From assembly GCF_035917415.1 (NCBI RefSeq), contig NZ_CP109073.1, positions 1,719,001-1,783,000 of the forward strand: a stretch of DNA of 64,000 bases, written 5' to 3'. A program made the position numbers and the translations under genes. Source of the DNA: Streptomyces sp. NBC_01803. Lineage in GTDB: Bacteria > Actinomycetota > Actinomycetes > Streptomycetales > Streptomycetaceae. A model generated the notes under the pieces. It saw only the letters and a list, made by a program, of their open reading frames with translations. It made no database searches and was not told where the DNA came from. Shown here piece by piece: positions 7,595-26,333 of the stretch; position 1 is the stretch's first letter; each line of letters opens with the position of its first letter.

Positions 7595-7667
7595 TACCCC
7601 CGACCGGATTCGAACCGGCGCTACCGCCTTGAGAGGGCGGCGTGCTAGGCCGCTACACAACGGGGGC
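7595..7667 (-). tRNA. tRNA-Glu (CUC)
   Basis: The 73-nt minus-strand cloverleaf has acceptor GCCCCCG pairing with CGGGGGU, anticodon arm GCCGCCCTCTCAAGGCGG with anticodon CTC, and a T-arm containing GGTTCGAATCC. No CCA is encoded. Confidence 0.95.
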
Positions 7668-7691
7668 CCGCGAAAGATCCTTGCGGATCCG

Positions 7692-7764
7692 TACCCCCGA
7701 CCGGATTCGAACCGGCGCTACTGCCTTGAGAGGGCAGCGTGCTAGGCCGCTACACAACGGGGGC
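7692..7764 (-). tRNA. tRNA-Glu (CUC), second copy
   Basis: Nearly identical to the other Glu tRNA. The only changes I see are a compensatory pair in the anticodon stem (CTGCC/GGCAG instead of CCGCC/GGCGG). The anticodon is CTC and the length is 73 nt. The two copies are 24 bp apart. Confidence 0.95.
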
Positions 7765-7786
7765 TTGATCTTGTTGAGAGATCGCG

Positions 7787-7858
7787 CTGGGGTACCAGGA
7801 CTCGAACCTAGACTAACTGAACCAGAATCAGTCGTGCTGCCAATTACACCATACCCCA
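7787..7858 (-). tRNA. tRNA-Gln (CUG)
   Basis: The 72-nt minus-strand cloverleaf has acceptor TGGGGTA pairing with TACCCCA, discriminator G, anticodon arm ACTGATTCTGGTTCAGT with anticodon CTG, and T-arm GGTTCGAGTCC. It heads the Gln-Glu-Glu tRNA cluster downstream of gltX. In this lineage Gln-tRNA is normally made through GltX and GatCAB, which are also in the window. Confidence 0.95.
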
Positions 7859-23241: not shown

Positions 23242-24855
23242 TCAGTCGGTCGGCCGCAGCCCGGCGCGCAGCAGTCCGTAGGTGTAGGCGTCGTCCAGCG
23301 CCTGCCAGGAGGCGGCGATGACGTTCTCCGCCACGCCCACGGTGGACCACTCCGCCTCGCCGTCGCTGGTGGTGACCAGCACCCGGGTCGTGGACTGGGT
23401 GCCGTGCTTCCCGGCGAGGATGCGCACCTTGTAGTCCACCAGCTGGATACGGGCCAGCTGCGGAAAGGTCCGCTCCAGGCCTGTGCGCAGCGCCCGGTCG
23501 AGCGCGTTCACCGGTCCGTTGCCCTCGCCGCTGGCGAGAACGCGCTCCCCCTTCGCCCAGATCCGCACCGTCGCCTCGTTCTCCATCGAGCCGTCGGCGC
23601 GCTGGTCGGTGATCGTACGCCATGACTCCAGGCGGAAGAAGCGCTGCGGGCGACCGTTGACCTCGTCGCGCAGGAGCAGCTCGAACGAGGCGTCGGCGGC
23701 CTCGTAGGTGAAGCCCCTCAGCTCGCGCTCCTTGACCCGCTCGACGATCCGGCCGACGAGTTCGCGGTCGTCCAGGTCGTAGCCCAGCTCCTTGCCCTTG
23801 AGCTCGATGGACGCGCGGCCCGCCATGTCGGAGACCAGCATCCGCATGGAGTTGCCGACCCGCTCCGGGTCGATGTGCTGGTACAGGTCCGGATCGACCT
23901 TGATGGCCGAGGCGTGCAGCCCGCCCTTGTGCGCGAAGGCGGAGACGCCGACGTAGGGCTGGTGGGTGGCGGGCGTCAAGTTGACGACCTCGGCGATCGC
24001 GTGCGAGATGCGGGTCATCTCGGTCAGGGCGCCGGGGGGCAGCACCCGCCGGTCGTACTTCAGCTCCAGGGCGGCGACCACCGGGAAGAGGTTGGCGTTG
24101 CCGACGCGCTCGCCGTAGCCGTTGGCGGTGCACTGCACATGGGTGGCGCCGCCGTCCACGGCGGCGAGGGTGTTGGCGACGGCGCAGCCGGTGTCGTCCT
24201 GCGCGTGGATGCCGATGCGGGCGGCGGTGTCGGCCACCACGGTGCGCACCACGGCCTGGACCCGGGACGGGAGCATGCCGCCGTTGGTGTCGCACAGCAC
24301 GACCACGTCGGCGCCGGCCTCGTGCGCGGTGCGGACGACATCGAGCGCGTAGCCGGGGTTGGCCGCGTAGCCGTCGAAGAAGTGCTCGCAGTCCACGAAG
24401 ACCCGGCGGTCGTGCGCGCGCAGGTGGGCGACGGTGTCCCGGATCATGGCCAGGTTCTCGTCCAGGGTGGTGCGCAGGGCCAGCTCGACGTGGCGGTCGT
24501 GGGACTTGGCGACGATGGTCACAACGGGGGCGCCGGAGTCGATCAGCGCCCGCACCTGCGGGTCGGCGGCGACGTCCGTGCCCGCCCTGCGGGTGGCGCC
24601 GAAGGCCACGAGCCGGGCGTGCCGGAAGTCGATCTCGGTCCGGGCCCGCTGGAAGAACTCGGTGTCCCTCGGGTTCGCGCCCGGCCAGCCGCCCTCGATG
24701 AAGCCGACGCCGAAGTCGTCCAGGTGACGGGCGATGGTGAGCTTGTCGGCGACCGTGAGATTGATGCCCTCGCGCTGGGCGCCGTCGCGCAGGGTGGTGT
24801 CGAACACATGGAAGCCGTCGCTGGGGGCCCGCGGGTCCAGGGCGTCCGTCGTCAT
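23242..24855 (-). CDS. cimA: (R)-Citramalate synthase
   Basis: Condenses pyruvate with acetyl-CoA to citramalate, giving a threonine-independent route to 2-oxobutyrate and isoleucine. The 537-residue protein has the TIM-barrel signature DTTLRDGAQREGINLTV, then GGWPGANPRDTEFF. The metal-binding His pair is in IGIHAQDDTG, followed by CTANGYGERVGNANL. The C-terminal part (about 400-537) is a LeuA-type dimerisation/allosteric domain. Sequence cannot fully exclude a 2-isopropylmalate-synthase-like activity, but GGWPGANPRD is typical of the CimA branch. An Ile-coding leader and attenuator lie upstream. leuB, leuC and leuD in the window could serve the later steps. Confidence 0.9.
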   Translation of the reverse strand: MTTDALDPRAPSDGFHVFDTTLRDGAQREGINLTVADKLTIARHLDDFGVGFIEGGWPGANPRDTEFFQRARTEIDFRHARLVAFGATRRAGTDVAADPQVRALIDSGAPVVTIVAKSHDRHVELALRTTLDENLAMIRDTVAHLRAHDRRVFVDCEHFFDGYAANPGYALDVVRTAHEAGADVVVLCDTNGGMLPSRVQAVVRTVVADTAARIGIHAQDDTGCAVANTLAAVDGGATHVQCTANGYGERVGNANLFPVVAALELKYDRRVLPPGALTEMTRISHAIAEVVNLTPATHQPYVGVSAFAHKGGLHASAIKVDPDLYQHIDPERVGNSMRMLVSDMAGRASIELKGKELGYDLDDRELVGRIVERVKERELRGFTYEAADASFELLLRDEVNGRPQRFFRLESWRTITDQRADGSMENEATVRIWAKGERVLASGEGNGPVNALDRALRTGLERTFPQLARIQLVDYKVRILAGKHGTQSTTRVLVTTSDGEAEWSTVGVAENVIAASWQALDDAYTYGLLRAGLRPTD

Positions 24856-24960
24856 GGCGGGGAGACTCCTGTCGGAAGGATGCGTGGTTTCAGCCTGGCT
24901 CCACCGCCCCGCGTTCCCCGCGCTCCCGCCTCCCAGCCCTGGTCGGGCCGGAAAACGAAA

Positions 24961-24986
24961 AGACCTCTCGCGGATGCGAGAGGTCT
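24961..24986 (-). terminator. Attenuator terminator upstream of cimA
   Basis: Perfect 11-bp stem (AGACCTCTCGC at 24961-24971 and its complement at 24976-24986) with a 4-base loop. On the minus strand it is followed by TTTTCGTTTTCC, an actual U-rich tract, which is rare in this genome. It lies 106 bases before the cimA start and just after a short leader ORF, so it is most likely an attenuator. Confidence 0.8.
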
Positions 24987-25039
24987 GCGCGCGGGTCTGG
25001 GGCGAGGTGGCCGCTGCCGCGGGTTGTGCGGATCAGCGG

Positions 25040-25075
25040 TCACTGCGGACCGGCGCGCCTGTCACCGATAATCAT
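25040..25075 (-). CDS. Leader peptide MIIGDRRAGPQ for cimA attenuation
   Basis: An 11-codon ORF whose second and third codons are both isoleucine (ATT, ATC), followed 53 bases later by a terminator with a U-tract and then by cimA, an isoleucine-pathway gene. No ribosome site is visible, so it may be leaderless like many actinomycete leader peptides. Ribosome stalling at the Ile codons when Ile-tRNA is scarce would be expected to prevent the terminator. This is inference from layout. Confidence 0.65.
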   Translation of the reverse strand: MIIGDRRAGPQ

Positions 25076-25226
25076 GGCGAACGAGAGCACGCGGCCAGTG
25101 TGGCACACGGTGTCCCCGTGCCGCGTGCCGTCTCACCATCCGGACGCCGGTCCCGCGCGGCCCGGCCGGTGGGCGGGGCCGCGCGGGTGAGCGGGGTGCG
25201 GGAGGGACCGGATGCGGGAACGCGGG

Positions 25227-26333
25227 TCAGCCGACGCGGTGCATCCAGCCGTGCCGGTCCGGAACGCGCCCGGTCTGGATGCCAAGCAGCTCCTCGCGCA
25301 GCCGCATGGTGACCGTGCCTGGCTGTCCGTCGCCGACCGTCCAGGAGGCGGCGGCCGACTTGACCGAGCCGACCGGGGTGATCACGGCGGCGGTGCCGCA
25401 GGCGAAGACCTCGGTGATGGTGCCGTCCGCGTTCCCGTCGCGCCAGTCGTCGGTGGAGATGCGGACCTCACCCGTCGCGTAGCCGAGGTCGGCGGCGATG
25501 CGCAGCAGGGAGTCGCGGGTGATGCCCGGCAGCAGGGTGCCGGTGAGGCCGGGAGTCACGATCTTCGCGTCGGCGCCGGAGCCCTGGACGAAGTACAGGT
25601 TCATCCCGCCCATCTCCTCGATCCAGCGGCGCTCGGTGGCGTCCAGCCAGACGACCTGGTCGCAGCCGTGCCCGGTGGCCTCGGCCTGGGCGACGAAGGC
25701 GGCGGCGTAGTTCCCCGCGCACTTGGCCTCGCCGGTACCGCCCGGGGCGGCGCGGACGTACTCCGTGGAGAGCCACACGGAGACGGGCTTGACACCCTTG
25801 GCGAAGTAGGCGCCGGCCGGGGAGGCGATGAGGATGAAGAGATACTCGTTGGCCGGGCGATTGATGCCGAGGCCGACCTCGCTGGCGAACATGAACGGCC
25901 GCAGGTAGAGCGACTGCTCGCCCGCGGCGGGCACCCACCCCTGGTCCTGGGCGAGCAGGACGTCGATGGCCTCGACGAACGTCTCGACCGGGAGCTCGGG
26001 CATCGCGAGCCGGCGCGCGGAGCGCTGGAAGCGCTCGGCGTTGGCGTCGGGGCGGAAGACGGCGACCGAGCCGTCGGCCTGGCGGTACGCCTTCAGCCCC
26101 TCGAAGATCTCCTGGCCGTAGTGGAGCGCCATGGTGGCCGGGTCCATCTGGATCGGCGCGTAGGGCTGAAGTCGCGCGTCGTGCCAGCCCCGGCCCTCCG
26201 TCCACCGGATGGTGACCATGTGGTCCGTGAAGTACCGGCCGAATCCGGGAGCGGCGAGCACCGATTCCCGTTCCGCCTCGGACAGCGGCTGTGCGGCGGG
26301 CTTGAGGTCGAATGCGATGGCGGGCGTCGTCAT
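25227..26333 (-). CDS. ilvE: Branched-chain amino acid aminotransferase
   Basis: A PLP-dependent fold-type IV transaminase that makes leucine, isoleucine and valine from their 2-oxo acids. At 368 residues it is the long actinomycete form. The PLP lysine is Lys204 in [13 protein letters not shown]. The conserved [15 protein letters not shown] is near residue 75, [14 protein letters not shown] near residue 150, and [16 protein letters not shown] near the C-terminus. The ATG at 26333 has GAAGGA ten bases upstream. It lies between leuB and the cimA leader on the same strand. The 243 bp upstream hold no other gene. Confidence 0.95.

What the first reader, a model, noticed from the sequence alone, without database searches (positions are those of the whole stretch)
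24856..25075. Isoleucine-codon leader peptide and attenuator in front of cimA
A short ORF MIIGDRRAGPQ, with two Ile codons at positions 2-3, is followed by a perfect 11-bp hairpin with a real U-tract and then the citramalate synthase gene, an isoleucine-pathway enzyme. Attenuation is described for actinomycete ilvB and leu genes; I do not recall one for cimA, so this may be a new member that senses Ile-tRNA specifically.
Basis: partly seen in the sequence, partly recalled or inferred. Interest (0 to 1): 0.72.

Follow-up and report, generated by a model that had tools for sequence, protein, structure and literature searches.

The report
Isoleucine-sensing RNA switch before cimA
In front of cimA, a gene for making the amino acid isoleucine, Streptomyces and many related bacteria carry a tiny gene with isoleucine codons followed by two back-to-back RNA hairpins, the second of them a transcription stop signal, which most likely switches cimA on when isoleucine runs short; the pattern is widespread, but I saw no bench test of it.

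Summary
Confirmed and extended. The minus strand holds a leader ORF with ATT-ATC (Ile-Ile), an 11-bp terminator with U-tract, then cimA (TIGR00977). A model of the leader hits 135 of 296 genomes of the class. Of 120 hits that I fetched, 100 precede cimA. In most of these the architecture is constant: Ile run 11-14 nt before a covarying GC-rich hairpin (A:B) that abuts the terminator without gap. A ribosome with the first Ile codon in its A site ends at arm A; one at the stop codon covers A. Other copies precede ilvB (Val/Leu/Ile leaders), ilvA, and a small ACT-like gene. An Ile-responsive ribosome-mediated attenuator is the best explanation. Against the textbook scheme, I found no conserved strand-exchange antiterminator: mean predicted terminator pairing is 0.97-0.98 in every ribosome state. 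How A:B affects the terminator (perhaps by abutment) is inferred. No expression data. My searches of an open-access library found no report for cimA.

The parts
25130..25134 (-). GAGAC, conserved upstream element of unknown role, 27 nt before the -10
   Evidence: conserved in at least 95% of 78 aligned sequences; coordinates
25097..25107 (-). extended -10-like promoter element TGTGCCACACT
   Evidence: conserved in the alignment; across the class 74 of 94 leaders have such an element 6-8 nt before a candidate leader start against 15 of 3463 control start triplets
25040..25090 (-). leader ORF, probably leaderless, GTG start, MLSFAMIIGDRRAGPQ
   Evidence: GTG or ATG at this position in 79 of 81 sequences; transcription start at 25090 is inferred
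   Evidence: this ATG is missing in 17 of 81 sequences
25067..25072 (-). control codons ATT ATC (Ile-Ile)
   Evidence: first Ile codon is ATT in 81 of 81; the next codon is Ile in 75, Met in 5, Thr in 1 of 81
25048..25058 (-). arm A (GCGCGCCGGTC), inside the leader ORF
   Evidence: found in 81 of 81; pairs with arm B, covariation across the class
25036..25043 (-). P2 5' strand GTGACCGC, overlaps the leader stop codon
   Evidence: compensatory changes; present in Streptomyces-type elements, deleted in L035
25017..25031 (-). P3, variable small hairpin in the A:B loop
   Evidence: folding
25007..25014 (-). P2 3' strand GCGGCCAC
24987..24997 (-). arm B (GACCCGCGCGC), abuts the terminator
   Evidence: 10 of 11 pairs with arm A; zero gap to the terminator in 79 of 96 class-wide elements
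24961..24986 (-). intrinsic terminator hairpin AGACCTCTCGC-ATCC-GCGAGAGGTCT
   Evidence: compensatory changes
24951..24960 (-). U-tract
23242..24855 (-). cimA, citramalate synthase, the controlled gene
   Evidence: TIGR00977, 632.8 bits

Best explanation
The leader is an isoleucine-responsive, ribosome-mediated transcription attenuator of cimA. Transcription starts at or next to GTG 25090 and a ribosome begins the leaderless ORF. With enough Ile-tRNA it passes the Ile codons and covers arm A, so hairpin A:B cannot form and the terminator stops transcription. When Ile-tRNA is short it stalls on the Ile codons with its front edge just at arm A, so A:B forms directly against the base of the terminator and lets RNA polymerase pass into cimA. 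Shown by comparison: the conserved parts, their spacing, the covariation and the link to Ile-pathway genes. Inferred: the start site, translation of the leader, stalling, and read-through. Least certain: how A:B disables the terminator. It does not do so by exchanging strands in the models I ran; abutment (steric clash or stacking at the junction between stalled ribosome, A:B, terminator and polymerase) is my preferred but unproven answer.
For: Ile1 is ATT in 81 of 81, although ATT is 1 of 85 Ile codons in four genes of the window. 93 of 94 class-wide cimA leaders have Ile near A, and 84 of 95 elements have a run of two or more; shuffles give 0.7%. First Ile codon 11-14 nt before A in 84 of 93, last 7-9 nt in 76 of 93. 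A:B pairing in 57 distinct arm pairs: 253 of 285 cells at positions 5-9 against 192.7 (sd 4.5, max 214) with permuted partners. Peptide C-termini change frame while arm A stays fixed, so arm A is kept as RNA. Ile leaders before cimA, ilvA and a small ACT-like gene; Val/Leu/Ile leaders before ilvB. -10-like element 6-8 nt before a leader start, 74 of 94 against 0.4% of controls. In the related ilvB1 leader of M. tuberculosis, replacing the codons LVVI by AAAA abolished induction (PMC13236596, part of section 10 read).
Against: No conserved antiterminator: mean predicted terminator pairing is 0.97-0.98 with no ribosome, a stalled ribosome or a ribosome at the stop, over 94 elements, one of 94 below 0.5 in each state. 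In 9 Streptomyces-type leaders it is about 1.0 in every state except L040, where it falls to 0.25 with the ribosome at the stop, the wrong way round for this model. Upstream duplexes with the terminator arms are weaker than the terminator in 15 of 17 sequences, equal in L053, stronger in L040. cimA genes without the element exist: 13 of 20 cimA loci picked from genomes without a model hit have none that I could see. In S. coelicolor, leader codon mutations in ilvB had no effect and those in leuA did not fit classical attenuation (as reported in PMC1262725). The S. lividans TSS paper lists eight leader peptides and none for cimA (PMC8079986, passages). R1 was trained on sequences with Ile codons, so the share of Ile leaders among its hits is somewhat biased.
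Confidence: 0.72

Rival explanations
1. A classical strand-exchange attenuator whose antiterminator my folding missed: for example a pseudoknot of the A:B loop with the terminator 3' arm, or a kinetic intermediate, as proposed for ilvB-II in Corynebacterium.
For: ilvB-II was proposed to pair the terminator's right shoulder with the P1 loop (PMC10272879); C. glutamicum ilvBNC shares a GCC trinucleotide between antiterminator and terminator (PMC11857589). In L040 an upstream segment pairs with the terminator 3' arm better than the terminator does (-17.5 against -16.4), and in L053 equally well.
Against: Loops of A:B vary from 3 to 64 nt (leaving out two misassigned arms) and some, such as those of L207, L169 and L175, have no complement that I see; the two hairpins overlap by 1-2 nt in only 7 of 96 elements and abut exactly in 79; mean P(terminator) is 0.97-0.98 in all states. 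Pseudoknots and kinetics were not modelled.
Confidence: 0.2
2. The hairpin is only a terminator that separates ilvE from cimA; the short ORF is incidental, and cimA has its own promoter below the hairpin.
For: Terminators between genes are ordinary; ilvE lies upstream on the same strand. No start-site data for cimA were available to me.
Against: Conservation of promoter-like element, ATT codons, arm A and exact spacing; A:B covariation; codons that change with the gene controlled.
Confidence: 0.1
3. Opposite polarity: A:B helps the terminator (stacking, or keeping arm B or the loop away from it), so that a translating ribosome favours read-through.
For: A:B and terminator are both stable and compatible in the minimum-energy folds. 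In L040 the terminator is weakened when the ribosome sits at the stop (0.25).
Against: It would give less cimA under Ile limitation, against the usual logic; M. tuberculosis ilvB1 is induced when branched-chain amino acids fall (PMC13236596). L040 is 1 of 9.
Confidence: 0.1
4. Control acts after transcription (RNA decay, Rho, or reinitiation at the GTG that overlaps the leader stop), and the stem-loops matter only for that.
For: GUGA overlap of stop and a new start in 73 of 78 Streptomyces-type leaders that could be scored, with the second frame passing the terminator in 73 of 78.
Against: That frame reaches the cimA start region in 42 of 78 and its phase to cimA is mixed; class-wide short forms whose stop codon directly precedes A have no such arrangement that I noticed.
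Confidence: 0.08

Closest known systems
ilvBNC attenuator of Corynebacterium (ilvB-II motif; 'fast attenuator' model)
   Same: Near-leaderless short leader peptide with branched-chain codons; in the C. glutamicum model the antiterminator hairpin lies directly next to the terminator (PMC10272879 sections 11-13; PMC11857589 abstract, sections 12 and 14 and passages).
   Different: Controls ilvB; mixed Leu/Val/Ile codons; the two hairpins share a GCC trinucleotide, whereas the cimA hairpins abut without overlap in 79 of 96 elements.
ilvB1 attenuator of Mycobacterium tuberculosis
   Same: Branched-chain leader codons (LVVI) needed for induction, Rho-independent terminator (PMC13236596, passages and part of section 10).
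   Different: Controls ilvB1NC; described there with mutually exclusive hairpins.
Streptomyces leader peptides ilvL, leuL, trpL, alaL, thrL, metL (S. lividans)
   Same: Short leader peptides, most described as leaderless, some with intrinsic terminators (PMC8079986, passages).
   Different: The table shown there has eight attenuators and none before cimA.
LEU element of actinobacterial leuA
   Same: Leader peptide before a gene of the same enzyme superfamily (PMC1262725, parts 1 and 2 of 3 read; the superfamily is general knowledge).
   Different: Leu codons, pseudoknot, base stem with the Shine-Dalgarno box; the conclusion there counts it among cases where attenuator parts are missing.

Membership tests
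Ribosome-mediated transcription attenuator (amino-acid leader peptide) | Short translated ORF with codons for the end product of the controlled gene | tested here: met
   Conserved Ile codons near the end of a short ORF; translation itself not shown
Ribosome-mediated transcription attenuator (amino-acid leader peptide) | Intrinsic terminator between leader ORF and gene | tested here: met
   termination not measured
Ribosome-mediated transcription attenuator (amino-acid leader peptide) | A structure that forms or not according to ribosome position | tested here: met
   Predicted mean P(A:B) 0.91 with ribosome at the first Ile codon, 0.00 at the stop, 94 elements; the second value follows from the mask
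Ribosome-mediated transcription attenuator (amino-acid leader peptide) | Antiterminator that shares a strand with the terminator | tested here: not met
   with L040 and L053 as exceptions; pseudoknots and kinetics not modelled. I therefore file it as a variant that works like an attenuator
Ribosome-mediated transcription attenuator (amino-acid leader peptide) | Read-through rises when the amino acid is limiting | not testable with these tools
   no expression data
ilvB-II motif / C. glutamicum ilvBNC attenuator | Located before ilvB, branched-chain codons, terminator base overlaps the antiterminator | tested here: not met
   cimA downstream; Ile control codons; overlap of 1-2 nt in 7 of 96 elements
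LEU element | Leu codons paired with the Shine-Dalgarno box, pseudoknot | tested here: not met
   Ile codons, terminator, 95 nt between the U-tract and the cimA start
T-box or any Rfam 15 family | Covariance-model match | tested here: not met
   Window: only three tRNAs at gathering threshold; for 24700-25300 only four hits far below gathering scores at E up to 5; 20 relatives: none

The most novel reading that the evidence does not exclude
Actinomycetes carry a class-wide family of isoleucine attenuators (cimA, ilvA, a small ACT-like gene) that work without an antiterminator: the ribosome toggles a sensor hairpin that abuts the terminator with exactly zero spacing. When the ribosome is stalled at the foot of that hairpin there is no RNA slack left between ribosome and polymerase, so the terminator cannot close. 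Inserting a few nucleotides at the junction should make termination constitutive.
Probability: 0.3. Interest if true: 0.78.

Novelty: new variant of a known kind. Interest (0 to 1): 0.58.

Why it matters
It would add the first committed step of the citramalate route to isoleucine to the genes under attenuation, over a whole class of bacteria used for antibiotics and amino acids, and it gives a regulon in which the leader codons can be read as a label of what each gene makes. It also offers a clean test case for attenuation in which the sensing hairpin and the terminator touch but share no base. For engineers, it is a ready target for relieving cimA in Streptomyces.

Tried and rejected
Strand-exchange antiterminator: masked folding of 9 leaders, duplex scans of both terminator arms in 17, nascent folds before the 3' arm is made in the same 17, with the terminator 5' arm on average 0.02-0.69 paired, a 94-element test and a base-overlap test; none gave a conserved competitor, L040 and L053 being exceptions. 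Pairing of the CUCUCG at the transcript 5' end with the terminator 3' arm was considered and rejected because it is absent in several clades. Known riboswitch or T-box: rejected. Coupling by reinitiation into a second frame: not conserved enough (3 of 81 loci had no AGTG and were not scored). The first leader-ORF script lacked an upper bound on the Ile window and gave nonsense ORFs; its tallies are not used and one search replaces it, though I read single leader peptides from it. One search listed hairpins with a loose rule and is used for the cimA/not-cimA split. L184 and L203 were dropped as false hits. Arms of at least L181 and L242 are misassigned by the script (also L239); they were left in the counts. 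Of the 120 fetched: 100 cimA (L168 only in part, at a contig end); 7 ilvB-type (6 scanned, L189 not scanned); 1 ilvA; 10 small ACT-like by eye (6 scanned against Pfam without a hit, L198, L199, L202, L259 not scanned in the right frame); 2 false. The 120 are regions that I picked from the hits, not all hits.

Full report
WHAT IS THERE. The finding is on the minus strand, between ilvE (ends 25227) and cimA (starts 24855). Reading 5' to 3': a -10-like TGTGCCACACT (25107-25097); GTG at 25090; then GTG CTC TCG TTC GCC ATG ATT ATC GGT GAC AGG CGC GCC GGT CCG CAG TGA; two small stems; GACCCGCGCGC (24997-24987); the terminator AGACCTCTCGC-ATCC-GCGAGAGGTCT (24986-24961) and a T-rich tract; 95 nt; cimA. 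The leader folds better than all 200 dinucleotide shuffles (z -4.4). The gene is citramalate synthase by TIGR00977, 632.8 bits against a cut-off of 450; the other three matches in the genome are at most 32% identical.

STREPTOMYCES. Leader DNA hits 198 of 199 genomes of the genus, the own genome included. In the 80 best cimA loci of a public genome collection (nearly all Streptomyces, a few from sister genera) plus the window, arm A is preceded by an Ile codon in 81 of 81; it is always ATT, and the next codon is Ile in 75, Met in 5, Thr in 1. In four genes of the window ATT is 1 of 85 Ile codons, so these are rare codons, as is common in attenuator leaders (general knowledge). I therefore place the start at GTG 25090, at the inferred transcription start. 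After the Ile codons the peptide changes frame between clades (GSRRAGPQ, GSSAPVRSDR, or an early stop) while GCGCGCCGGTC stays fixed, so that stretch is kept as RNA. It pairs, 10 of 11 positions, with GACCCGCGCGC just before the terminator. The inner stem P2 and the terminator show compensatory changes. In L035 almost everything between the two arms is gone, so A:B is the core.

THE CLASS. A covariance model of 32 leaders (R1) hits 121 of 121 genomes of the family (17 of 17 genera) and 135 of 296 of the class (60 of 114 genera; 28 of the 135 are the window's own genus); cimA itself is found in 236 of those 296. I fetched 120 hits. 100 are followed by cimA. 95 of these have an arm A starting GCG[CT]; they come from 22 families other than the window's and from four other genera of its own family. 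94 of the 95 have a leader ORF ending near A. 93 of 94 have at least one Ile codon near A, 84 of 95 have two or more in a row, 25 three or more; in 1900 shuffles of the upstream stretch, 0.7% have two and none three. The first Ile codon begins 11-14 nt before A in 84 of 93, the last 7-9 nt before A in 76 of 93. The stop codon begins 1-4 nt before A in 59 of 94, and 10-11 nt past the start of A in 27 of 94. In Streptomyces the ORF runs on through A into P2.

A:B is a real helix. Among 57 distinct arm pairs (96 elements), positions 5-9 pair in 253 of 285 cells against 192.7 (sd 4.5, maximum 214 in 1000 permutations) when partners are permuted; position 6 alone shows C-G, U-A, G-C, A-U and U-G. 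The four base pairs at the foot are nearly invariant, but the arm search required them, so their count says little; the search also chose the best-paired arms, which favours pairing at the other positions. Extending both stems as far as they pair, A:B and the terminator meet with no gap and no overlap in 79 of 96 elements, overlap by 1-2 nt in 7, and are 1-3 nt apart in 10. Shared ancestry explains part of this constancy.

LEADERLESS START. An extended -10-like element lies 6-8 nt before one of the candidate leader starts in 74 of 94 elements, against 15 of 3463 control start triplets downstream. There were 2.2 candidate starts per leader, which helps the first figure a little.

OTHER GENES. 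The 20 hits without cimA include seven ilvB-type genes (six scanned) with leaders such as MRTRILVVMQRAG and MRVITLVLRGRAG, GTG read as M (L180, L186); one before threonine ammonia-lyase, leader VQLHLMAIT (L174); ten before a small gene of about 75-115 codons, in a genus that is Embleya by the names of its nearest relatives and in others. That gene looks like an ACT domain of the IlvM/IlvN kind by eye; six of the ten were scanned against Pfam without a hit, one has a weak sub-threshold NCBIfam match, and its nearest relative is called an ACT domain protein in one source. Two hits are false. The codons thus follow the product of the gene.

CHECK WITHOUT THE MODEL. Because R1 was trained on Ile leaders, I looked at 20 cimA loci hand-picked from class genomes without an R1 hit. 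Six have the full element (L278, L279, L280, L284, L285, L288), one has it with a single Ile codon (L283), 13 show none: seven of family f18, four of f25 where ilvE and cimA nearly touch, one each of f20 and f7. So the element is common, not universal, and R1 misses some.

MECHANISM. Geometry (general knowledge: a ribosome covers about 12-13 nt beyond the first base of its A-site codon): with the first Ile codon in the A site the ribosome ends at the first base of A; at the stop codon it covers A. Mean predicted pairing over 94 elements: A:B 0.96 free, 0.91 stalled, 0.00 at the stop (this last by construction); terminator 0.97, 0.98, 0.98, with one element below 0.5 in each state. Hence A:B is toggled but does not, in these models, take a strand from the terminator. 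Duplex scans and nascent folds of 17 sequences gave no conserved competitor; L040 has an upstream segment stronger than the terminator and L053 one as strong, and in L040 the terminator falls to 0.25 with the ribosome at the stop, which points the wrong way for my model. The nearest experimental cases are C. glutamicum ilvBNC, where antiterminator and terminator hairpins are adjacent and share a GCC, and mutations in the terminator region raise expression seven- to eight-fold (PMC11857589, sections 12 and 14 and passages), and M. tuberculosis ilvB1, where replacing the control codons abolishes induction (PMC13236596, part of section 10). By analogy A:B is the antitermination state. In cimA the shared bases are missing; I infer that abutment does the work: with the ribosome at the foot of A:B and polymerase at the foot of the terminator, closing both hairpins leaves no RNA between the two machines. 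This is inference, about 0.3.

AGAINST. No expression data. Work on S. coelicolor ilvB and leuA, as reported in PMC1262725, did not find classical behaviour of leader codons. PMC8079986 lists eight S. lividans attenuators and none at cimA (passages); its supplements were not open to me.

LITERATURE. Ten searches of the open-access library (one search was on terminators) listed no paper that I could recognise as being on attenuation of cimA; I saw only the best-ranked rows of most of them. SCO5529, the S. coelicolor name I recall for cimA, occurs in one paper, on Lon protease (listing only). Two Streptomyces 3'-end papers were searched for terms and do not contain 'cimA' in the main text; nor does PMC4833913. 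Lopatovskaya et al. 2010, a broad prediction of attenuators seen only as a reference, was not read, so prior prediction cannot be excluded.

Noticed in passing
window 25043-24852, minus strand: A second ORF (GTG overlapping the leader stop as GUGA) runs through the terminator and ends on the cimA start (ATGA). The GUGA overlap is kept in 73 of 78 scored Streptomyces-type loci, but the frame reaches the cimA start region in only 42 of 78.
   Followed up: partly
window 25134-25130, minus strand: GAGAC conserved 27 nt before the -10 element in Streptomyces; too far for a -35, perhaps an operator.
   Followed up: no
L194, L196, L205, L197, L198, L202, L199, L201, L182, L259: A copy of the element, in most with Ile codons, precedes a small ACT-like gene (IlvM/IlvN kind by eye) in Embleya-like and other genera.
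   Followed up: partly
L174: The element stands before ilvA (threonine ammonia-lyase) in one genome of family f18, whose cimA is on another contig.
   Followed up: partly
L163, L189, L190: Family f11 genomes without a cimA match at E 1e-60 carry the same hairpin pair before ilvB-type genes with Val-Val or Val-Ile leaders, read by eye.
   Followed up: partly
L272, L275, L276, L290 (minus or plus strand as fetched): Four cimA loci of family f18 lack the Ile leader but share another GC-rich stretch upstream of cimA (around CTCCGTCGCGCG...CCGGTCGCTGACC), perhaps a different leader.
   Followed up: no
window 7595-7858, minus strand: Three tRNA genes in a row.
   Followed up: no
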